DNA from: a virus
Virus record (IMG/VR): IMGVR_UViG_3300035670_000355
Span: 1-47,380 of that record
DNA length: 47,380 bases
Direction: 5' to 3' (one strand)
Shown here: in pieces, positions 1-47,380 of the stretch
Layout of the letters: every line of letters starts with the position of its first letter
Numbering within the stretch: the stretch's first letter is position 1
Position numbers and translations under genes: made by a program
The notes under the pieces: generated by a model
What the model was told of the DNA's origin: nothing
Seen by the model: the letters and a program-made list of their open reading frames with translations, nothing else
Database searches by the model: none

Positions 1-59
1 ATCAGCTTGCCCAGCTCGATGTGGCGGGCCTGCAGATCTTCGATGGTGATGGTTTGCAT
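1..59 (-). CDS. DGR variable protein, N-terminal fragment (cut by window edge)
   Basis: Only the first 19-20 codons are present (start codon complement 57-59); the gene runs off the left edge. The protein begins MQTITIEDLQARHIELGKLI, and bases 1-126 are identical to 47154-47279, which cover the start of the complete variable protein at 46754-47212 and the 3' end of the gene before it. By inference this is the N-terminus of another copy of the same family, possibly the same gene whose C-terminus is cut at the right edge. It lies just downstream of the 87-461 variable protein, with a 27-base spacer. Confidence 0.75.
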   Translation of the reverse strand, partial: MQTITIEDLQARHIELGKL

Positions 60-75
60 GTGGAACCTCAGTGAA

Positions 76-89
76 TGATCAAAGGATCA
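76..89 (-). repeat. Hairpin just downstream of VR (copy 1)
   Basis: TGATCAAAGGATCA forms a 5-bp stem with a 4-base loop a few bases beyond the 3' end of the variable repeat in coding orientation. An identical copy lies at 47229-47242 behind the right-hand variable repeat. DGR target sites such as BPP-1 carry a short-stem, 4-base-loop hairpin at this position that helps target recognition. Here the role is inferred from position; the stem is shorter than in the known cases. The variable repeat at 46765-46858 does not have it. Confidence 0.4.
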
Positions 90-461
90 AATGGGCAATC
101 TGCGGACGGCTCGGGCACGGAACTCGCTGCTCTTGGGGATGCTGCCCTGGTAGCCGTAGCCGAAGAACTGATACCAAGCCCAGGAGGACTCTTCCTCGTC
201 GTCATCGGGCTCGCAGGGCGTGTTGGACCAGTACGCGCGCTCCTGGAACTCGCTCTTGAAGTGCTTGAACAGCAGGGCCTGCTCGACGCGGTCGGGCAGA
301 TCGCCGCCGATGCTCTTGGCCCATTCGAGCTGGGCCTGCCAGGTGGCGCCGTCGTTGTCGCCCGGCAGCAGGATGAGGTGGTAGGCCTCACCGTTGGCGT
401 TGCCGATCAGGCCGGTGTAGAGCTCGCCTTCAGCGAGCGGGGGCTTGGGAATCACTTGCAT
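87..461 (-). CDS. DGR variable protein (C-type-lectin/DUF1566-like fold)
   Basis: A 124-aa protein with no signal peptide or membrane segment. The core LPDRVEQALLFKHF...AYWSNT matches the DUF1566/Lcl type of C-type-lectin fold, and the C-terminus SSWAWYQ...EFRARAVRRLPI is the variable repeat region. The last ~30 codons align with the template repeat at 46124-46217, differing only at template adenines. Its N-terminal part differs from the 46754-47212 protein, so it is a diverged paralogue. It follows rdgC in the leftward operon (38-bp gap). It presumably displays a hypervariable ligand-binding surface; the ligand is unknown and no tail-fibre domain is attached. Confidence 0.85.
   Translation of the reverse strand: MQVIPKPPLAEGELYTGLIGNANGEAYHLILLPGDNDGATWQAQLEWAKSIGGDLPDRVEQALLFKHFKSEFQERAYWSNTPCEPDDDEEESSWAWYQFFGYGYQGSIPKSSEFRARAVRRLPI
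95..188 (-). repeat. Variable repeat VR-a of the DGR
   Basis: A 94-bp segment homologous to the template repeat at 46124-46217. Thirteen substitutions are visible in the variable block, every one at a position that is adenine in the coding-strand template. The invariant 3' part (coding orientation), which encodes EFRARAVRRL, would be the initiation-of-mutagenic-homing (IMH) region. It forms the 3' end of the 87-461 gene. Confidence 0.9.
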
Positions 462-499: not shown

Positions 500-1423
500 T
501 TAGGCAGGCTGTGAGATGACCGATTCGCCGCCAAGGGCGTCGAGAAGGTCGGGAATCAGTTGGCGAAGCTCGCCCGTGCTGATGGACGCGTCAGCCTCGA
601 AGGCCTCGGCCTGGTCAACGCGGCGGCCAGTGCGCTGCTCGGTGGACTCGAAGACCACATCAAGGAAGGCCAGCTTCTTGACCTGCAGGGCGTCGGTCAG
701 CATGAACGACACGCGGTCGCGCCAGGTCAGCGCCACACGGGTGGGCACCTTGCCGGCCTGGATGTGTTGTTTCACCTCTTCGGTGTCCAGCGGGTGGCGC
801 CCGTAGCGCACCACTGACCTCATCTCATCGGGCGACTTCAGCTCGCACTCGCGGTCCACGCTGAACTGGTAGGGCGGCTCGCCCGTGCCCAGCCAATGGG
901 CCATGGCCACCGCTGCGGATGTCTCGGTCTGGATCAGGCTGAGCGCCAGGCCGTCCATGGCCTTGACCAGCATCGACACCACCTCGTCGGCCTTGGCTTG
1001 GCTGCCGCAGTCGATGACCAGCAGGCGGGCCTTGGGGTCGATCCACACCCAGGTGCGGGACACTTTGGTGAAGGCCATCGGCAGCAGTTCCAGCAGAGCC
1101 TGCTCCTTGAGTTCCTTGGTCTGCCTGCGCCCCGGGCGGCGGCCGGTCTGCTGCTCGACCTGGTCGGCGATTTCCTCGGTGCGACGTTGCAGGGCGTCGG
1201 ATGGCACCTTGCGTGCCTCGGTCTGCAGGCGGGCGATCCACTGGCCACCGATGGCTTCGATCATTGCCGCGCCGTCTTCCAGGCGGGGAGGAACGAAGCC
1301 GGATGTCTTCTGTTGCGTGGGGCCGCAGGCCACGAAGGCAACGCGGGCCAGGTCTTCGCGGGCCTTGTCCAGGTCGGGCACCCAGGTGGGAGCGATGCGG
1401 TAGACGATCAGTTGCTTGAACAT
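500..1423 (-). CDS. rdgC: Recombination-associated protein RdgC
   Basis: A 307-aa protein, close to the ~303 aa of bacterial RdgC. It opens MFKQLIVYRIAPTW and has family-typical stretches such as FVPPRLEDG and the C-terminal LTWRDRVSFMLTDALQVKKL. RdgC forms a DNA-encircling ring that binds dsDNA and restrains RecA-type recombination. Next to the phage Bet annealase and exonuclease it probably tunes recombination or protects phage DNA ends (inference). It is in the leftward operon; the 126-aa zinc-finger gene lies immediately upstream with a 2-bp gap. Confidence 0.9.
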   Translation of the reverse strand: MFKQLIVYRIAPTWVPDLDKAREDLARVAFVACGPTQQKTSGFVPPRLEDGAAMIEAIGGQWIARLQTEARKVPSDALQRRTEEIADQVEQQTGRRPGRRQTKELKEQALLELLPMAFTKVSRTWVWIDPKARLLVIDCGSQAKADEVVSMLVKAMDGLALSLIQTETSAAVAMAHWLGTGEPPYQFSVDRECELKSPDEMRSVVRYGRHPLDTEEVKQHIQAGKVPTRVALTWRDRVSFMLTDALQVKKLAFLDVVFESTEQRTGRRVDQAEAFEADASISTGELRQLIPDLLDALGGESVISQPA

Positions 1424-1425
1424 GC

Positions 1426-1806
1426 TCAGTCTTTCTTGATCGGGTTTTGATCTTTGAAGCGCTCAATGGCTTCAGGCCAAGGGGTTCCGGCTTCGACGCA
1501 GTTGGCGATCAGGTAGCGTTGCAACCAGGTCAGGTCCTTCCACAGGCAGCAATGCGCCGCGGCATGGGTGTCGACGTGATCGGTCAGGCAGACGGGGCAC
1601 TTGTTGCGAAGGTCTGCTTCCTCTGCATCTTTCCCCTGACAGCAATCCAAGGCCTCTTGTTCCCATTCGTGCTCGTCGCCGCAAATGGGGCAGATGTAGA
1701 CGGGGTCCAGGCGTGTGTAGATGCGATCACGCTGGCTGGGCGGGGTATCTGCCAGTTCTTGAAAACGCTTCAGGCCGCTGACTGTTGCTGGGCTGAGATC
1801 TGCCAT
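1426..1806 (-). CDS. Small Cys-rich (zinc-binding) phage protein
   Basis: A 126-aa protein starting MADLSPATVSGLKRFQ. It carries two CPxC knuckles (CPICGDEH and CPVCLTDH), each followed by a CC pair (DCCQ and HCCL), suggesting two zinc sites. The open frame continues further upstream, but the ATG at 1806 fits the start of recognisable protein. Function unknown. It lies between a KTSC gene and rdgC in the leftward recombination operon. Confidence 0.7.
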   Translation of the reverse strand: MADLSPATVSGLKRFQELADTPPSQRDRIYTRLDPVYICPICGDEHEWEQEALDCCQGKDAEEADLRNKCPVCLTDHVDTHAAAHCCLWKDLTWLQRYLIANCVEAGTPWPEAIERFKDQNPIKKD

Positions 1807-1894
1807 ATCGATTCCTTGATGAGGTTGGCGGGCTGGCGAACAAAGCGCGCCCTCTACTGCAACGAATTGATCTGATGCAGCCCGCCGAACTAGG

Positions 1895-2188
1895 TCAGGC
1901 CGCGACGACTTCAGCGTCAGGGCTGTACTTGCGGCTCGGGAGCTTCGAGATGTGCTCGCCGAAGTGGCGACCCAGGCTCTCGGCCATGAAGAAGGCGCAG
2001 GCCGTCTCGGGCTCGACGTCCGGGTACTCGTAGACGTTGCCAGCGCCACGGGTGAAGGTGACGGCCAGGGTCTTGGTTTCGTGGCTGTAGCCGATGGAGG
2101 CGATCTGGTTGGAGGTGACAGGCTGCAGGGCGATGGCCTGGCGCTGTTCGTTGGTGCAGTCGATGGCGGGGGTGTAGTCGCGGGGCAT
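1895..2188 (-). CDS. KTSC domain protein
   Basis: A 97-aa protein whose middle (SNQIASIGYSHETKTLAVTF...VYEYPDV) matches the KTSC domain found in small phage and bacterial proteins, sometimes linked to RNA- or lysyl-tRNA-synthetase-related proteins. A Shine-Dalgarno-like GGAG precedes the ATG. Exact role unknown. It is part of the leftward operon downstream of the exonuclease; the 153 bp between them hold no gene I can support. Confidence 0.75.
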   Translation of the reverse strand: MPRDYTPAIDCTNEQRQAIALQPVTSNQIASIGYSHETKTLAVTFTRGAGNVYEYPDVEPETACAFFMAESLGRHFGEHISKLPSRKYSPDAEVVAA

Positions 2189-2341
2189 GGTGGTTCTCCG
2201 TGGAGGATGTGAAGGGGGAGGCCGGCGCGTGGTGGCAGCACTCGGGAAACGCAGCCGTGCGGATGCTGGTGTTAGGTAACGAGGACTTCCAACCCCGCCG
2301 CACGCGATGCGACTGCCGATGCCGGCCTCCGAAACTGGTGT

Positions 2342-4078
2342 TCAGGCGGCCAGCAGTTCGCCGGCCTTGGCCTTGTTGATGTGGCGCACCAGGGCGTCAC
2401 AGATGCAGGGGAAGTCGCTTTCGCGGTAGAGAACCGCGCGCTTGTCCTTGCCGGACGCCTTGACCCCCAGCACTTCGGAGACGAAGGCCTCGGTCAGGGT
2501 GAAGCCCAGGCGCTCACCGATGGCGCCGAGCTTCAGGGTGGACGGTTCGCCAGCGGGGGCCGCGGCGGCGGCTTGCCCTGCACCCATTGCGCCGCCGCGC
2601 GGGCTCTCATTGGCAGCGGTGCCGCGGTCGGTAGCGTCGGCCGGCACCGAGGCCGGCTCTGCCTTCAAAACCTGTTGCGGTTGCTGCGCTTGGTGAATTC
2701 GGTTGGATTCGGCCTGCTCACGCTCCAGGCGCGCGGCCTCTTCGGCGCGGATGCGCTCGCGCTCGGCTTCAAGGCGTGCGGCCTCGGCCTGCTTGTGGTC
2801 GGCGATCCGGGACTTGACCAGCATCGTCAGGTCGTCGGGGGCCTTCAGCACGATGACCGGCGTGTCGGCGAACAGGAAGGCGTGCTCGCTGGCCAGGTCG
2901 CGCAGGGTGTTGAGGTTCAGCTGGATCTTGTCGGCGATCTCGTTGGCGCTGATCTTGGCGTGTGCCAGGGTGGTGTTCACCGCGTCGCGCAGGCTCTCGA
3001 CCGTGCGCTTGCCCTTGATGGCCCCGGCGAAGTCGGCCGGGATCGCGGGCATGTAGGGCTTGCCCAGGCGAGCGTTCAGGCTGGCGATGTGGGTGGCCAG
3101 GGCGCTGCGGCCTTCGGAGACGATCTCTTCGCGAATCTGCTCCTTGCGGGCCTTGACCAGCTTGTCCAGTTCCAGGCGGGTGCGCTTGGCCTCGGCCGCA
3201 ATGGTGTCGATCGCGTTGAACAGTTCCTCGATGCTGGCCGTTTGGCTCAGGGCGTGTTCCTTGGTGGCTTGCAGGCGGTCTTCAACGTCCCCGCACCACT
3301 TGACCACCTTCTCGGCATCTGCGAAGTCCTGGTCGGTTTCCAGCGTGCGGTTGATGGCCTTGAACACCGCCAGGGCGTGCTCCTTGTACTCGGCCAGGTT
3401 GCTGGACACCACCTTGCCAGTGACCTCGACCCGCAGGGCAGGGAGGTTCTCAGGGGTGCGGCCGATGGCCTTGACCTCGACGGCCTGGGGGACGTAGTTG
3501 GCAACGTCTTGGGCCAGGACTTCCCAGCCGGCCAGGATCTTGGCGCGGAGTTCCAGGTCAGGGTAGTACCAGCAGTGGCGCTCTTCGACCAGCTGGTCGC
3601 CGTTCCACTTGGATGCCATGAACAGGATGCGGCCGGCGCCGGAAACGTGCAGTTGCTGCTCCAGTTGGGCCCGATAGTGCGACGGCAACTCGTGACCCTT
3701 GATGTCCGCGTGCATGACGTCGCGCAGGCTGTTTGAGAGGGTTTTGTGCTCGAAGCCCACGTCGTACATCAGCGTGAGCCCGTCAAACGAGGCCGACAGC
3801 TTCCCGTTGACACCCGTCACGGGGTACAGGTCTTCGCCGATGATCTCTTCGGCCAGCGGGCGGGCCAGGGCCTCGAATCGGTGGCCAGCGTCGAAGATCG
3901 ACTGGGTTTCAGCCGACACCTCGGCAGTGATGCCGGTGGCCAGTTCGCGGATGAGGGCGTCGCGGGTCTTGTAGGGGCTGCAGCCCATCATGGCCGGCGC
4001 ATCGCTGGCGTTGAAGTGCTGGGCTCGGTGGGCAAGCCATTCGGGGCTGCCTTGTACCAAGTTGACGAGTTGCATCAT
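2342..4078 (-). CDS. YqaJ-type viral exonuclease with long C-terminal extension
   Basis: A 578-aa protein. The N-terminal third is a YqaJ/lambda-exonuclease-type PD-(D/E)xK nuclease: GSPEWLAHR at the start, SFDGLT supplying the acidic residue and FEHKT the ExK pair. The middle is helical (about residues 240-330). Residues ~415-480 form a charged coiled coil (EAERERIRAEEAARLEREQ), followed by an Ala/Pro-rich linker and a C-terminal domain. It would resect dsDNA ends to give 3' tails for the Bet annealase encoded just upstream. The start overlaps the bet stop (ATGATG), indicating coupling. The family is usually shorter; the C-terminal half is an extension of unknown role. Confidence 0.85.
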   Translation of the reverse strand: MMQLVNLVQGSPEWLAHRAQHFNASDAPAMMGCSPYKTRDALIRELATGITAEVSAETQSIFDAGHRFEALARPLAEEIIGEDLYPVTGVNGKLSASFDGLTLMYDVGFEHKTLSNSLRDVMHADIKGHELPSHYRAQLEQQLHVSGAGRILFMASKWNGDQLVEERHCWYYPDLELRAKILAGWEVLAQDVANYVPQAVEVKAIGRTPENLPALRVEVTGKVVSSNLAEYKEHALAVFKAINRTLETDQDFADAEKVVKWCGDVEDRLQATKEHALSQTASIEELFNAIDTIAAEAKRTRLELDKLVKARKEQIREEIVSEGRSALATHIASLNARLGKPYMPAIPADFAGAIKGKRTVESLRDAVNTTLAHAKISANEIADKIQLNLNTLRDLASEHAFLFADTPVIVLKAPDDLTMLVKSRIADHKQAEAARLEAERERIRAEEAARLEREQAESNRIHQAQQPQQVLKAEPASVPADATDRGTAANESPRGGAMGAGQAAAAAPAGEPSTLKLGAIGERLGFTLTEAFVSEVLGVKASGKDKRAVLYRESDFPCICDALVRHINKAKAGELLAA

Positions 4079-4926
4079 TGGGCTCCGTGTTCGGTGTTGG
4101 GGGTGACGTCGGTGGCGTCGGCCGTCTTCAGGCCCTTGATGCGGGCCTCTTGCTGGGTGGTGAGCTCGCCCTTGGTCTTGGCCATGGCGAGGATGTCGGC
4201 TGGCGACTTGATGCCGGAGGCAACCGCCTTCGCCCAGCGGCTGAACTGCGCCTCGAAGGCGTCATCGGGCCAGGTCACGCGCTGCACCGGCTCGGCTTCC
4301 TGCCGTGGCTGGCTGCTCTGCACAACCTCGCCTGCGTCGTCCAGCGACTTGCCCATCATTTCGTCGGCGGTAGGTGCGCTCCCAACCTCGGGGAAGGCCT
4401 TGCGCAGAGCCTGTGCCTCGGCGCACTTGGCCAGCTGACCGTAAGGACGCTTGGTCCACATGGCGTTCGGCGCAATGGACTTCTCCTTGCCGCCCTTGAC
4501 TGCGTAGTTCTCCTTCCAGAGCTCTTTCGCGGTGAAGTCGACCACCTCGCCGGTCTGGAGGCGGCGCTTGACGGTGACGCGACACCAAGCGGGGAAGGTG
4601 ATGGTCTGGCCGCCGATCTCTTCGGTGATGTCGGGCCCAAATTCGGGCTCTGACACGCCGGCGCAACCGCTGCGGGCGGCCTGGGTGCGATACAGGCCGA
4701 TGCCAGGCATGACCACATCACGCATGGACCCGCTCTTGCTGTCCCACATGGGGACGATGTGCACGGGCTTCTGCATGGCATCCAGGCTGGCGGCCTTGCA
4801 GTAACTCATGACCAGCTTGATAGATGCCGGTGAGGCGCCGGGATACAGGCTGTTTTGCAGGGTGTGCATGACCTCTTCTTCGGTCATGGCAACCGCGCGG
4901 TTTTCAGCCGACACGAGTGCATTCAT
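4075..4926 (-). CDS. bet: Phage recombination protein Bet/RecT (ssDNA annealase)
   Basis: A 283-aa annealase of the lambda Bet/RecT family. Typical stretches are MSYCKAASLDAMQKPVHIVPMW, MPGIGLYR and YGQLAKCAEAQALRKAFPE. It anneals complementary single strands made by the neighbouring exonuclease during phage recombination. The start at 4926 has an upstream GGAG and gives the normal N-terminus; the frame stays open further upstream, but that part is not protein-like. The C-terminal ~80 residues are a variable tail. Confidence 0.92.
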   Translation of the reverse strand: MNALVSAENRAVAMTEEEVMHTLQNSLYPGASPASIKLVMSYCKAASLDAMQKPVHIVPMWDSKSGSMRDVVMPGIGLYRTQAARSGCAGVSEPEFGPDITEEIGGQTITFPAWCRVTVKRRLQTGEVVDFTAKELWKENYAVKGGKEKSIAPNAMWTKRPYGQLAKCAEAQALRKAFPEVGSAPTADEMMGKSLDDAGEVVQSSQPRQEAEPVQRVTWPDDAFEAQFSRWAKAVASGIKSPADILAMAKTKGELTTQQEARIKGLKTADATDVTPNTEHGAQ

Positions 4927-4946
4927 GTTCAGGATCTCCGTGGAGT

Positions 4947-5231
4947 TCAGTGCTTGTCGCCGAACAGGCGGGCAACGCCAGTCCAGTCGATGCCAAGGCG
5001 TTCGGTGGCGATGCCCCAAAGGGCCATGACCAGGCACAGGGCGATGAGGATGACCAAGCCGATGCCGATGCGCTCCCAGCCTTCGGAAAGGTTGCGCTGG
5101 GTGTCTTCCCAGTCGTGGTGGGCCTGCGAGTCGGCGGTGTAAGGGCCTTCAATCACCCCAGGGGCAGTGAAGTGGCGGTGCAGCTCATGCCCGCGGGCCT
5201 GGAACTGGACGACGTTGGACGTCTGTTGCAT
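4947..5231 (-). CDS. Small membrane protein
   Basis: A 94-aa protein starting MQQTSNVVQFQARG, with a good GGAG 7 bp before the ATG. Residues ~63-80 (GIGLVILIALCLVMALWG) form one transmembrane segment, preceded by a polar N-terminus and followed by a short tail. Function unknown. It sits between two other small genes and bet in the leftward early operon. Confidence 0.7.
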   Translation of the reverse strand: MQQTSNVVQFQARGHELHRHFTAPGVIEGPYTADSQAHHDWEDTQRNLSEGWERIGIGLVILIALCLVMALWGIATERLGIDWTGVARLFGDKH

Positions 5232-40282: not shown

Positions 40283-40311
40283 GCTAAGTGATTATCGCAC
40301 CTAGTCTTTTT

Positions 40312-40358
40312 TGGCTCCCCGACCTGGGCTCGAACCAGGGACCTACGGATTAACAGTC
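40312..40358 (-). other. attP core: 3' portion of a tRNA-Asn gene
   Basis: On the minus strand this 47-bp stretch reads the anticodon loop CTGTTAA (anticodon GTT), the variable and T arms GGTTCGAGCCC and the acceptor end with CCA of tRNA-Asn. The 5' half of the tRNA is absent: the anticodon stem stops pairing upstream. Integration into the 3' end of a host tRNA-Asn would rebuild a whole gene. It lies beside the integrase, as expected for attP; the minus strand is the tRNA sense. Confidence 0.9.
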
Positions 40359-40497
40359 GGAGCCCTCAAATCGAGATTCATTCGATGGATAAAGGCGATG
40401 GCCGATTTTCTGGTCTCATAACTGGCTGTCGTTCTATATTAAATTCCACTGGGATGACGAAATCCAAAAACCTGTATTTGAGACGCGCCAAGCCCAT

Positions 40498-40530: not shown

Positions 40531-41640
40531 TCAAATTGCGATCAGGTTGGGCGCCGCTGTCTCGCGCCAGCGAGCCTTGATGTAACGCTCTGTGGTGGCC
40601 TTGTCGGCGTGCCCGCACAGCAGCTGGATGCGCTCGATGGGAATACCGGCCAGCCACATATCCGTGGCGCCCTTGCCCTTGAGGTCTCGGAATCCGAAAG
40701 TCGGCATGGTGGCCAGCGGGCCGCCCTGGGCCTCGTGCTCGGCGCGGATCTTGTAGATGACCTTGCGCAGCATCCCGGCTATGCCGCTATAGGTGTAGGC
40801 CTTGCCCTTGTTCTTGCCGCGCGTGGCGTAGATAAGGGGGCGGCGCAGCACCGGGATGGTGCCTGCGGCATCCTCGACCAACTCGAGCAGCCGACCCTCG
40901 AGGCCGATGTCGATGAGGCGCCCTGTCTTGCCCTGGCGAAAGTGCAGGACCTTGCCGTCGCCCTTGGTTTTGATGATGGACGGCGACCACGCGATGATGT
41001 CGGACTCGGGGCGCTGCAGGGTGCGGTAGGTAAGTTCCATGAGTAGGCGCACCTCGGGCGAGGCCGCTTCGTAGACCGCTCGGTACCAGGCATCCTCCAC
41101 ATAAAGCTCGCGCTTGGTTTCCTCGTTGCGGGTGACACCGGCCGCGCGCATGCATGGGTTGGTGGTCAGGCCGGGCGGGCACTCAGGGGAGCGCAGCAGC
41201 CAGGAGATCATGGCGGACAGGCAGGCCCGTTCGCGGTTGGCCGGCACGGGCCGACCCGCCGCCTCGTTGTCGCGCAGGTAGGCGCTGACGTGGTTGGGCC
41301 TCACGGCGCCGACCAACATGGGGCCAAAGAAGACTTTCAAGGGGACGACGTTGGCGCGATAGTCGGCCAGCGTGCGCGCGCTCAGAGTGCCGGCCTTCAC
41401 GCGGGCTTCGCATGCCACGATGAACCGATCAAGCCAGTACCCGACGGTACCGTAGGCCCGGCCGGGCTCGTTGTAGAGGTTGGCGCGCTCCTTGGCCAAT
41501 GCCAGGTCTGTGCCGCAGTCTTCCCAGCGCTCGGCGGCGGTGTCTGTCGCCCGGTGGCGGTACCAGAACTTGCCGCGGCGCATGGCCAGGCGGGTGCCGG
41601 CCAGGCCCAGGGGATCACCGTCCTTGCGCTTTCGTCCCAT
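40531..41640 (-). CDS. int: Tyrosine-type phage integrase
   Basis: A 369-aa site-specific recombinase. An N-terminal arm-binding domain is followed by a core-binding SAM-like region (TVGYWLDRFIVACEARV...). Catalytic residues are the Arg in TYRTLQRPES, Lys in FRQGKTGRL, FRDLKGKGATD (Lys where the second Arg is usual, and Arg at the HxxR His position), His in LLCGHADKATT and Tyr in ERYIK. It integrates and excises the phage at the tRNA-Asn core 170 bp downstream. Confidence 0.92.
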   Translation of the reverse strand: MGRKRKDGDPLGLAGTRLAMRRGKFWYRHRATDTAAERWEDCGTDLALAKERANLYNEPGRAYGTVGYWLDRFIVACEARVKAGTLSARTLADYRANVVPLKVFFGPMLVGAVRPNHVSAYLRDNEAAGRPVPANRERACLSAMISWLLRSPECPPGLTTNPCMRAAGVTRNEETKRELYVEDAWYRAVYEAASPEVRLLMELTYRTLQRPESDIIAWSPSIIKTKGDGKVLHFRQGKTGRLIDIGLEGRLLELVEDAAGTIPVLRRPLIYATRGKNKGKAYTYSGIAGMLRKVIYKIRAEHEAQGGPLATMPTFGFRDLKGKGATDMWLAGIPIERIQLLCGHADKATTERYIKARWRETAAPNLIAI

Positions 41641-44791: not shown

Positions 44792-45023
44792 GCTCCACCT
44801 CCTGGCCCGCCAGGCTGCGCACCACCTCGATGGGCCAGACCTTGATGCTGCTGCCTGCCAGTTCACGGCCTGCGGGCACCTTGCCAGATGCCACCCAGCG
44901 GTGCCAGGTGGAGCGATCAATGGGGAGCAGGCCCTGCTTGCCCGTCTTCGGGTTGCGGCAGATGTCCTGCACGCGCACCAGGGCGCCTGGAGGGTAGGGC
45001 TTGGGGGGTGTCGCGGCGTTCAT
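44784..45023 (-). CDS. AlpA/excisionase-like HTH protein coupled to the DGR RT
   Basis: A 79-aa protein. VRVQDICRNPKTGKQGLLPI, then RSTWHRWVASGKVPAGRELAGSSIKVWPIEVVRSL (in parts), gives a MerR/AlpA-type helix-turn-helix and wing. AlpA-like proteins act as excisionases or activators. Its ATG overlaps the RT stop (ATGA) with a GGAG upstream, so it is made together with the RT. It could be the phage excisionase or a DGR-linked regulator. Confidence 0.7.
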   Translation of the reverse strand: MNAATPPKPYPPGALVRVQDICRNPKTGKQGLLPIDRSTWHRWVASGKVPAGRELAGSSIKVWPIEVVRSLAGQEVEHA

Positions 45024-46222
45024 GCGAATCTCCGGTATGTTTTGGTCAATTCGGCCTTGACCGCGTGCCCGCGGCCCCGCAGCAGGTTGGCAAGCTGGGC
45101 GCGGTCGTGGTGGCTGTGGGTGGCCTGGCGCAGCAGGCCGAAGTAGCTGTTGGCGCTCTCCAGCAACTCGCCCGCTTCGGTGTGTGCGAGCCGGTCGAGG
45201 GCCACATGCAGGGTCTTCCTGCGCACCGTGCGTCGCCATGGCTTGATGACCTGGCCGACGAAGTCAACGCCGCGATGAAGCGGCTGGATGATGGTCTTGC
45301 GCGGGTTCAGGCGTGCTGCCAGTTGCTCAGGCAGGAAGGCTTCGATTTGCCGGTGGGCGTGGCTGAGCCACTCGGCGGACTCGTGCAGCAGCACGAAGTC
45401 ATCGACGTAGCGGATGTAGTGCCGGGCCTTAAGGCCGTGCTTGGCGAACTGGTCCAGCTCATTCAGGTAGACGTTGGCGAAAAACTGGCTCGACAGGTTG
45501 CCGATGGGCAGCCCCAGGCGGGCGGGTTGCTCGGCCAGTCGCTTGTGGCGCGGAACCAGGGCCAGCATGCTGGCGTCGCCGCGCAGTTCGAAGTCCTGGC
45601 GCGGGTCGTGGTGCAGCACGGTGTGCATCAGCGTGCGCCACCATGGCTCGGGCACGTGGCGGTCAAGCAGGCCCTGCAGGATGACCTTGTCGATGCTGAC
45701 GAAGAAGTTGGCCAGGTCGCACTTGAGGTAGTGCGCTGTGCGTGCCCAGTTCTGGGTGACGCTGCGCACCTTGGCCTCAAGGCGGTTGGCGGCGTAAAGC
45801 GTGCCGCGCCCCGGGATGCAGGCGCAGCTGTCAGCGATGAACCGGGCGTAAAAGCGCGGTGCGATCCGGTTGTGCAGCAGGTGGTGCACGACGCGGTCGC
45901 GGAACTCGGCGGCCCACACCTCGCGTGGCTTGGGGTGGGTGATGACAAAGCAGATCGAGCGGCCGGGCTTGTAGGCACCGGCCAGCAGCTCGTCGTACAG
46001 GTCACGGAGGTTGCGCTCCAGGCGTGCTTCGAAGGCCAGCGCGCTGGCGCTGTTGCGCTTGGTGCGGCGGCAGTCGAAGTAGGCCTGGGCGACTTCAGCA
46101 AAGGTCAGGTCAGCAGGTGCGCTCCAATCTGCGGACGGCTCGGGCACGGAACTCGTTGTTCTTGTGGTTGTTGTTCTGGTTGCCGTTGTTGAAGTTCTGA
46201 TACCAAGCCCAGGAGGACCCAT
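45020..46222 (-). CDS. DGR reverse transcriptase
   Basis: About 400 aa from the ATG at 46222, of which ~365 form the enzyme. RT motifs: YLKCDLANFFVSIDKVILQGLL (fingers) in parts, LPIGNLSSQFFANVYLNELD (motif 4 with the DGR-type GN.SSQ signature), YIRYVDDFVLL (catalytic YVDD) and GVDFVGQVIKPW. It copies TR RNA with adenine errors and delivers it to VRs. The frame is open across the TR and no ATG/GTG/TTG follows it, so the true start is unclear. It follows avd and TR in the order of BPP-1. Confidence 0.93.
   Translation of the reverse strand: MGPPGLGIRTSTTATRTTTTRTTSSVPEPSADWSAPADLTFAEVAQAYFDCRRTKRNSASALAFEARLERNLRDLYDELLAGAYKPGRSICFVITHPKPREVWAAEFRDRVVHHLLHNRIAPRFYARFIADSCACIPGRGTLYAANRLEAKVRSVTQNWARTAHYLKCDLANFFVSIDKVILQGLLDRHVPEPWWRTLMHTVLHHDPRQDFELRGDASMLALVPRHKRLAEQPARLGLPIGNLSSQFFANVYLNELDQFAKHGLKARHYIRYVDDFVLLHESAEWLSHAHRQIEAFLPEQLAARLNPRKTIIQPLHRGVDFVGQVIKPWRRTVRRKTLHVALDRLAHTEAGELLESANSYFGLLRQATHSHHDRAQLANLLRGRGHAVKAELTKTYRRFA
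46124..46217 (-). repeat. DGR template repeat (TR)
   Basis: A 94-bp template between avd and the RT. In coding orientation its variable block is rich in AAC/AAG codons, typical of DGR templates, and it shares the invariant 5' (TGGGCTTGG) and 3' (CGTGCCCGAGCC...) flanks with VR-a, VR-b and VR-c. It carries 24 adenines in the variable block. Confidence 0.93.
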
Positions 46223-46358
46223 CGTGCTTGACACGTCGCCCTGCCGAGTGCTCAGCAGGGAAACTGCGCCGGACCTTCCTGGCGCGATGCCAGGGGTCTC
46301 CGTGGTGCGCATGGCGGTGGCCTTGTGAGCCAGCTGCACGACCAGATTGAAAGAACGC

Positions 46359-46733
46359 TCAGGCATGGCGGCCTTGACCTCCATGCTGCGGGCGTGTTGC
46401 GCTGCGGCGCCACCCGTTGGCCTGCTTCCCGATGCTGGTGGTCAGCTCGACCGCCTTGGCATAGCCGGGCTTCGAGATGAGCCTCTTGTCCATGGCCAGG
46501 CGGATCATGAGCTCGATCACCTGCAGGCGCTCAAGCAGCTCCAGCAGGTGCGGCCCCTTGTCCTGCGCAACGTTGGCCCGGAAGACCAGCACCGTGATCT
46601 CGATGCACTCCGTGGCGATCTTGTCGCCGATGGAGCGCTTGAAATCCCGCTGCATGTTCTTGACCAGGTCGGTGACCACGTCGAGCAGGTCGTAGGCGAC
46701 CTTGTAGATGGGAAGTTGGGTGTGGGTGGCCAT
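46359..46733 (-). CDS. avd: DGR accessory variability determinant (Avd)
   Basis: A 124-aa four-helix-bundle protein: PIYKVAYDLLDVVTDLVKNM, KRSIGDKIATECIEITVLVF, LLELLERLQVIELMIRLAMD and YAKAVELTTSIGKQANGWRR are the four helices. Avd binds the RT and TR RNA and is required for mutagenic homing in BPP-1. It lies between the last variable protein and the TR, as in BPP-1. Confidence 0.92.
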   Translation of the reverse strand: MATHTQLPIYKVAYDLLDVVTDLVKNMQRDFKRSIGDKIATECIEITVLVFRANVAQDKGPHLLELLERLQVIELMIRLAMDKRLISKPGYAKAVELTTSIGKQANGWRRSATRPQHGGQGRHA

Positions 46734-46753
46734 GCTGATTTCAAATGACCAAA

Positions 46754-47212
46754 TTACTCAATGACCAATCTGCGGACGGCTCGGGCACGGAACTCGTCGT
46801 ACTTGTGGCGGTCGCTCTGGTAGCCGTCGCCGAAGTGCTGATACCAAGCCCAGGAGGAGTTGGTCTCGTGGGCCTGGCCGGACCAGTACCAGGCCTCTTG
46901 GAACTCGCCCTTGAGGTTGGCGAAGAGCAGCGACTGCTCGGCCCGCGTGGGCAGCTCGCCGCCTTGCTCGGTGGCCCAGGCAATGGCCTGCTCCCAGGTC
47001 TTGTCTTCGGCTTCGCCGGGCAGCAGCACCAGGTGGTGGCTGGGCTTGCCTTGCTCGTTCAGGATCAGGCCTGCGTAGCGCTCGCCCTGGCTCAGCTCGA
47101 TGTCGGTGCCGGGGATGTGCAGGATGGCGGGCAGCGCCGCCTTGAAGGAATCGATCAGCTTGCCCAGCTCGATGTGGCGGGCCTGCAGATCTTCGATGGT
47201 GATGGTTTGCAT
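46754..47212 (-). CDS. DGR variable protein (complete copy)
   Basis: A 152-aa protein. A helical lead MQTITIEDLQARHIELGKLI, then RYAGLILNEQG, LVLLPGEAEDKTWEQAIAWA, GGELPTRAEQSLLFANL and AWYWSGQ make the DUF1566/C-type-lectin-like core; the C-terminus SSWAWYQ...EFRARAVRRLVIE is variable. No signal peptide, no membrane segment and no fibre domain, so the product is predicted to be cytoplasmic or virion-internal unless attached to another protein. It is the copy nearest avd. Confidence 0.88.
   Translation of the reverse strand: MQTITIEDLQARHIELGKLIDSFKAALPAILHIPGTDIELSQGERYAGLILNEQGKPSHHLVLLPGEAEDKTWEQAIAWATEQGGELPTRAEQSLLFANLKGEFQEAWYWSGQAHETNSSWAWYQHFGDGYQSDRHKYDEFRARAVRRLVIE
46765..46858 (-). 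repeat. Variable repeat VR-b of the DGR
   Basis: Aligned with the TR over 94 bp. Eleven substitutions, all at template adenines; the invariant IMH part is unchanged. It forms the 3' end of the 46754-47212 gene. Confidence 0.92.
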
Positions 47213-47228
47213 GTGGAACCTCAGTGAA

Positions 47229-47242
47229 TGATCAAAGGATCA
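47229..47242 (-). repeat. Hairpin just downstream of VR (copy 2)
   Basis: TGATCAAAGGATCA, identical to 76-89, 6 bp past VR-c. Candidate DGR target-recognition hairpin. Confidence 0.4.
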
Positions 47243-47380
47243 AATGGGCAATCTGCGGACGGCTCGGGCACGGAACTCGTCGTTCTTGCGGCCGTAGTAC
47301 TGGGTGCCGTTGACGAAGAGCTGAAACCAAGCCCAGGAGGAGTTGGTCTCGTGGGCCTGGCCGGACCAGTACCAGGCCTC
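47240..47380 (-). CDS. DGR variable protein, C-terminal fragment (cut by window edge)
   Basis: The last 46 codons of another variable protein, reading EAWYWSGQAHETNSSWAWFQ and then the variable block to EFRARAVRRLPI. Outside the variable block the 39 bases before it (47342-47380) equal the matching bases of the complete copy (46859-46897). It is therefore a recent duplicate differing only where the DGR acts. The N-terminus lies outside the window and may be the fragment at 1-59. Confidence 0.85.
   Translation of the reverse strand, partial: EAWYWSGQAHETNSSWAWFQLFVNGTQYYGRKNDEFRARAVRRLPI
47248..47341 (-). repeat. Variable repeat VR-c of the DGR
   Basis: Aligned with the TR over 94 bp. Twelve substitutions, all at template adenines. 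It forms the 3' end of the partial gene at 47240-47380. Confidence 0.92.

What the first reader, a model, noticed from the sequence alone, without database searches (positions are those of the whole stretch)
45020..47380. Complete diversity-generating retroelement in a temperate phage, with at least three tandem target genes
The minus strand carries variable protein(s), Avd, template repeat and a DGR-type reverse transcriptase (GN.SSQ and YVDD motifs) in the BPP-1 order. Three variable repeats are visible (95-188, 46765-46858, 47248-47341) against one template. Known phage DGRs usually serve one or two targets; a tandem array of small targets is less usual.
Basis: partly seen in the sequence, partly recalled or inferred. 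Interest (0 to 1): 0.85.

Follow-up and report, generated by a model that had tools for sequence, protein, structure and literature searches.

The report
Phage mutation cassette with triple targets
A temperate phage carries a complete, probably active diversity-generating retroelement that rewrites three neighbouring lectin-like genes; it is a new member of a common betaproteobacterial phage lineage, whose template RNA carries its folded part on the opposite side of the template from the textbook system.

Summary
The DGR is real. One template repeat (46125-46217, -) and three variable repeats (96-188, 46766-46858, 47249-47341) differ at 13, 11 and 12 positions, all 36 at template adenines. Avd and a DGR-type RT are present; the targets have a C-type-lectin fold; the phage is temperate. 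The array is split by the contig ends: repeated ends and gene order in relatives indicate gene3-geneX-gene2-avd-TR-RT, with about 256 nt of geneX unassembled. GeneX looks like a fresh duplicate of gene2 fused to the gene3 tail. Multiple targets are normal here: of 111 distinct relatives 82 have two and 19 three or more (7 in tandem); the isolated phage Magia has three. Less expected is the template RNA. BPP-1 has its folded domain 3' of TR (Rfam Phage_DGR). This clade has none there; a covarying 5' domain, Rfam RT-15, ends at TR in 127 of 127 loci, and TR lies inside the RT reading frame. Searched from the RNA side, RT-15 and RT-16 sit directly 5' of TR, RT-14 directly 3'. The cassette is a known kind; the two layouts were not found in the literature I could read.

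The parts
46125..46217 (-). template repeat (TR), 93 nt, 28 adenines; lies inside the RT open reading frame
46215..46397 (-). structured 5' domain of the template RNA: Rfam RF03018 (RT-15), 169 bits against a cut-off of 82; spans the avd 3' end to the first bases of TR
   Evidence: covariation; own model R1
46766..46858 (-). variable repeat of gene 2; 11 mismatches to TR, all at A
47249..47341 (-). variable repeat of gene X; 12 mismatches to TR, all at A
96..188 (-). variable repeat of gene 3; 13 mismatches to TR, all at A
46754..47212 (-). target gene 2 (152 aa), C-type-lectin/Lcl_C fold, VR at the C-terminus
47240..47380 (-). 3' part of target gene X (cut by the contig end); body identical to gene 2, tail and downstream spacer identical to gene 3
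1..59 (-). 5' part of target gene X (cut by the contig end); first 19 codons identical to gene 2
87..461 (-). target gene 3 (124 aa), 53% identical to gene 2 in the aligned part
46359..46733 (-). avd (124 aa); bAvd PF22296 47.1 bits against a cut-off of 40; phrog_3206 E 2e-29
45020..46147 (-). reverse transcriptase; GTG at 46147 (inside TR) is the nearest canonical start; the frame stays open past TR and avd's stop to 46441
500..5037 (-). recombination genes upstream of the array after joining the ends: RdgC-like exonuclease, RecE-like, RecT-like
40531..41640 (-). tyrosine integrase (temperate lifestyle)

Best explanation
A functional DGR of a temperate siphophage-like phage, probably of a Burkholderiales host, diversifies an array of three small lectin-fold proteins. 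Transcription through avd and TR gives a template RNA with a folded 5' domain (RT-15) followed by TR. The RT, probably with Avd, copies TR with errors opposite A. The cDNA replaces the 3' end of gene 3, gene X or gene 2, anchored by the invariant 30-nt GC-rich 3' end shared by TR and all VRs. Gene X arose by recent unequal recombination between the VRs of gene 3 and gene 2, and was then rewritten. Shown here: parts, adenine-only differences, covarying 5' RNA domain, absence of a folded 3' spacer, C-type-lectin fold (predicted model). Inferred: that the 5' domain does the RT-recruiting and priming work of BPP-1's 3' spacer; that the RT's N-terminus is read through part of TR; that the lectins bind a receptor on host cells.
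For: 36 of 36 TR/VR mismatches at adenines. RT: best solved relative 8ub7, 31% identical to brt, phrog_1423 E 4e-111. Avd PF22296 above cut-off. Target model pLDDT 95.5, best PDB match the Legionella Lcl C-terminal domain. Gene X and gene 2 agree at every coding position observed outside the VR (except the short gene-3-type tail) but differ at 12 TR-adenine sites inside it, so rewriting followed duplication. RT-15 in the window at E 3e-42, in 127 of 127 clade loci with my model, 20 of 32 pairs compensated, 0 of 500 shuffles as high. No folded 3' spacer: no conserved structure, no reduced fourfold-site variation, no Phage_DGR hit. Integrase and partial tRNA-Asn.
Against: About 256 nt of gene X are not in the contig, and the exact copy number cannot be read from it. 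No population reads were available to see ongoing mutation, and no near-identical contig was found. The function of the 5' domain is inferred from position and conservation only. The targets lack an obvious virion anchor or signal peptide, so display on the particle is unproven.
Confidence: 0.85

Rival explanations
1. Only two targets exist (gene 3 and gene 2); the right contig end is a chimeric join through the shared VR, or a minority variant in the population.
For: The contig ends lie exactly in the repeated genes, VRs share constant ends, and two targets is the commonest number in relatives (82 of 111).
Against: The contig carries an uninterrupted stretch spacer(gene 3 type)-VR(third sequence)-gene 2 body, and its start repeats 126 nt, the length expected at a branch point for k=127; a 30-nt chimeric join is unlikely at that k (inference; the assembler is not known to me). 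Relatives with true tandem triples exist (L033, L053, L061, L082, L090, L104, L105).
Confidence: 0.15
2. RT-15 is a regulator of RT expression (leader or attenuator) and not part of the template RNA.
For: It precedes the RT and overlaps the avd end; Rfam's title for it is only 'RT-15 RNA'.
Against: It ends within 9 nt of TR wherever a TR was found, also when located from the RNA side in whole genomes. Other families, RT-16 (5') and RT-14 (3'), also abut TR. The usual 3' spacer is absent where RT-15 is present.
Confidence: 0.25
3. The conserved stretch between avd and TR is conserved because it encodes the RT N-terminus, not as RNA.
For: The RT frame is open from avd's stop through TR in 99 of 112 distinct loci, and spacer lengths keep the frame in 104 of 117.
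Against: No third-position excess there (entropy 0.55/0.67/0.63 and 0.87/0.92/0.87) against 0.57/0.49/1.31 in the RT core; strong base-pair covariation. The frame is broken by a stop in several loci with the RNA intact. Both roles may coexist.
Confidence: 0.1
4. The RT is a group II intron or retron enzyme and the repeats are incidental.
For: Group II (83.6 bits) and retron (43 bits) models match weakly.
Against: Those scores are far below the curated cut-offs (300 and 235); brt is the best relative; adenine-only TR/VR pairs; Avd.
Confidence: 0.01

Closest known systems
Burkholderia phage Magia DGR (MT701587; PMC7883833)
   Same: Same RT lineage (69% identical), Avd, RT-15, lectin-fold targets, next to recombination genes in a temperate phage; three VRs on my scan (genes 46, 47, 57)
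   Different: Magia is a myophage and its third target is about 7 kb upstream of TR; here all three are in tandem and one is a near-perfect duplicate
Bordetella phage BPP-1 DGR
   Same: Gene order target-avd-TR-RT, adenine mutagenesis, SQ-type RT, C-type-lectin VR
   Different: BPP-1 TR abuts avd and has a 144-nt folded spacer 3' of TR (RF03022); here 141 nt folded 5' of TR (RF03018), no folded 3' spacer, TR inside the RT frame; one large target (Mtd) against three small ones
DiGReF structural group 3 and multi-VR DGRs (PMC3521204)
   Same: TR overlapping the annotated RT ORF, and multiple paralogous targets, including Burkholderia, Ralstonia and Collimonas
   Different: That survey does not describe a 5' RNA domain in the sections I read
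Rfam RF03018 RT-15
   Same: Full-length match, positions 1-192 of 192
   Different: Rfam's title says only 'RT-15 RNA'; its place as the 5' domain of a DGR template RNA is drawn here

Membership tests
Diversity-generating retroelement | TR/VR pair with differences confined to TR adenines | tested here: met
   36 of 36 mismatches
Diversity-generating retroelement | RT with SQ-type motif 4 and YxDD, nearest to bRT | tested here: met
   IGNLSSQ, YVDD; 8ub7 E 2e-36; brt 31%. No RT tree was built.
Diversity-generating retroelement | Avd | tested here: met
   PF22296 above its cut-off, phrog_3206 E 2e-29; the NCBIfam Avd model matches below its cut-off
Diversity-generating retroelement | VR at the 3' end of a C-type-lectin-fold target | tested here: met
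   Lcl_C by sequence only below the Pfam cut-off
Diversity-generating retroelement | IMH and downstream hairpin at VR | tested here: inconclusive
   All repeats share a 30-nt invariant GC-rich 3' end; only a 5-bp hairpin seen by eye after VR3/VRX
Diversity-generating retroelement | RT-dependent A-to-N retrohoming | not testable with these tools
   needs an assay
BPP-1-type template RNA (Rfam Phage_DGR, RF03022) | folded spacer between TR and RT | tested here: not met
   found in BPP-1 at E 1e-18, absent from the window at E up to 1; no structure or synonymous constraint 3' of TR
Rfam RT-15 (RF03018) | covariance-model score above the gathering cut-off | tested here: met
   169 bits against 82
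Group II intron RT or retron RT | curated model cut-off | tested here: not met
   83.6 against 300; 43 against 235

The most novel reading that the evidence does not exclude
DGR template RNAs come in two polarities. In BPP-1 and in Firmicutes systems the folded, RT-binding domain is 3' of TR (Phage_DGR, RT-14). In this phage clade and in Nanoarchaeota-type DGRs it is 5' of TR (RT-15, RT-16); in this clade the 3' spacer is gone, so cDNA synthesis must be primed differently from the BPP-1 spacer-adenine mechanism, and TR is also read as the start of the RT.
Probability: 0.55. Interest if true: 0.7.

Novelty: new variant of a known kind. Interest (0 to 1): 0.48.

Why it matters
DGR biochemistry rests almost wholly on BPP-1, where a spacer 3' of the template recruits the enzyme and supplies the priming adenine. 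A large, widespread clade that lacks that spacer and has a conserved domain on the other side makes the priming rule testable, and would give the Rfam families RT-14, RT-15 and RT-16 a function. The duplicated gene X also shows how target arrays can grow: the VR itself is the homology for unequal recombination, and rewriting then separates the copies.

Tried and rejected
The conserved open frame upstream of TR first looked like an RT N-terminal extension; codon-position and covariation tests showed it is conserved as RNA, so I do not claim a conserved protein extension. Column-permutation and single-change stop tests of frame openness were confounded by gaps or lacked power. Exact-match scans for sister contigs with the same TR or target body found none. 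Relatives cannot be drawn for a virus record. The papers behind the RT-N motifs (Weinberg 2017) and a large DGR survey (Wu 2018) are not in the library, and no held paper names RT-15. A possible pairing of the invariant CUGGU in the 5' domain with ACCAG in TR cannot be tested because neither side varies.

Full report
OBSERVATION. The window is an uncultivated virus record of 47,380 bases. On the minus strand the TR is 46125-46217. Three VRs of 93 nt (46766-46858, 47249-47341, 96-188) differ from it at 11, 12 and 13 positions; every one of the 36 differences is at a TR adenine, replaced by G, T or C. No other copy exists in the window. The scanner used on relatives finds the BPP-1 pair and nothing in two 12-kb control stretches.

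PARTS. The RT shows IGNLSSQ and YVDD, matches phrog_1423 at E 4e-111 and its best solved relative is 8ub7 at E 2e-36, the next at 2e-7. It is 31% identical to BPP-1 brt; group II and retron models score far below their cut-offs. Avd passes the Pfam bAvd cut-off. The 152-aa target models at pLDDT 95.5, and its best PDB match is the C-terminal domain of Legionella Lcl, followed by many C-type lectins. Integrase, a repressor-like gene, tape measure, terminase and portal genes make it a temperate tailed phage. A partial tRNA-Asn 3' end beside the integrase is a likely attP. Host affinity is inferred from relatives in Burkholderiales and an Acidovorax phage methylase match.

THE ARRAY CROSSES THE CONTIG ENDS. 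Window 1-126 is identical to 47154-47279, and 47326-47380 to 46843-46897. Read on the minus strand this gives gene 3 (461-87), then the first 19 codons of gene X (59-1), a missing piece of about 256 nt if gene X is as long as gene 2, the rest of gene X (47380-47240), gene 2, avd, TR and RT. In relatives, homologues of the window's left-end genes (RecT, RecE, RdgC, repressor) lie upstream of the targets on the same strand, and the integrase and a right-end gene lie downstream (Magia), as this joining requires. Gene X has the body of gene 2 but the tail and downstream spacer of gene 3. That is the product expected from unequal recombination between the VRs of gene 3 and gene 2. In the covered parts of the body no difference to gene 2 is seen, while the VR differs at 12 TR-adenine sites, so mutagenic homing acted after the duplication. 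This is inference from sequence; reads would settle it.

HOW UNUSUAL IS IT. Among 111 relatives with distinct RT genes, 82 have two VRs, 18 three, 1 four and 10 one (some truncated); 7 of the triples are tandem and the others have a dispersed extra target. The usual pair is a gene of about 120 aa (gene 3 type) followed by one of about 152 aa (gene 2 type); here the second type is doubled. Magia was described with targets 47 and 57 (PMC7883833); the scan adds gene 46. Another isolated phage, Shewanella vB_Sb_QDWS, also has three places similar to the target. Published surveys report multiple VRs in about a seventh of DGRs (PMC3521204) and in 28.6% (PMC6642488). The array is thus an ordinary expansion.

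THE TEMPLATE RNA. In BPP-1 the TR follows avd directly and a spacer of 144 nt separates it from brt. That spacer folds, recruits the RT-Avd complex and supplies the priming adenine (PMC12875486); Rfam models it as RF03022, found here in BPP-1 at E 1e-18. In the window, TR is 141 nt from avd's stop, while RT homology starts about 20 nt after TR. The avd-TR stretch matches Rfam RF03018 (RT-15) over its full length at E 3e-42, ending at TR. In 62 relatives 20 of its 32 pairs show compensatory changes, 97.1% of cells pair, and no shuffle of 500 reaches the covariation score; sliding the partners destroys it. A model built from these finds it in the window, in all 80 related viral contigs and in 46 further loci, and in none of L130-L164, which are distant DGRs or truncated copies. 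Nothing comparable lies 3' of TR: no consensus structure and no drop in fourfold-site variation at the RT start.

TR INSIDE THE RT FRAME. The RT frame is open through TR and back to avd's stop in 99 of 112 distinct loci, and several relatives have no ATG, GTG or TTG between TR and the RT core. Codon-position variation shows no coding signal upstream of TR, so protein content there is not conserved. The RT start is therefore within or before TR in those relatives, but unresolved. Overlap of TR with the RT ORF was noted as 'group 3' in 2012 (PMC3521204).

TEST FROM THE RNA SIDE. RT-15 was sought in 7 carrier genomes and in 250 genomes of the family of a Paraburkholderia carrier. Of the above-cut-off loci examined, all but one (L181) have TR starting within 9 nt of the RNA's end, with the RT behind it; the one below cut-off (L193) has neither. 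RT-16 in 20 loci of a nanoarchaeal phylum: TR directly after the RNA in the 15 in which the scanner found a TR. RT-14 in Firmicutes: TR directly before the RNA in all 3 with a TR (also L149, L152, L154, L155). The folded domain can therefore sit on either side of TR, according to lineage.

MECHANISM. Shown: parts, adenine specificity, covarying 5' domain, absence of a 3' one. Inferred: the 5' domain binds RT and Avd and brings the TR 3' end to the active site, or stops the enzyme at the TR 5' end, as an avd motif does in BPP-1. How the cDNA is primed without the spacer is open. The lectins probably act in receptor binding, but they are encoded beside recombination genes, lack an evident virion anchor, and the same module occurs in a myophage and in this siphophage-like phage; their place on the particle is unproven.

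VERDICT. Whether that layout has been described in subscription papers I could not check.

Noticed in passing
window 40311-40362: Reverse complement of the 3' part of a tRNA-Asn beside the integrase gene, a likely attP; ARAGORN finds no full tRNA.
   Followed up: partly
L165 (Burkholderia phage Magia) 8292-8384: A third VR in Magia gene 46, annotated 'hypothetical protein' and not named in the genome announcement.
   Followed up: yes
L149, L195-L214: Rfam RT-16 lies directly 5' of a DGR template repeat in Nanoarchaeota-type genomes; 62 of 236 genomes searched have it above cut-off, some in several copies.
   Followed up: partly
L152, L154, L155, L175-L177: Rfam RT-14 lies directly 3' of the DGR template repeat in Firmicutes, like the BPP-1 spacer.
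   Followed up: partly
L181: A strong RT-15 match (192 bits) with no TR found and RT homology only about 900 nt downstream; possibly an interrupted DGR.
   Followed up: no
window 4075-5037, 2342-4078, 500-1423: RecT-like, RecE-like and RdgC-like recombination genes just upstream of the target array; a similar setting recurs in several relatives.
   Followed up: partly
window 46341-46345 and 46176-46180 (-): Invariant CUGGU in the 5' RNA domain could pair with ACCAG inside TR; untestable by covariation.
   Followed up: no
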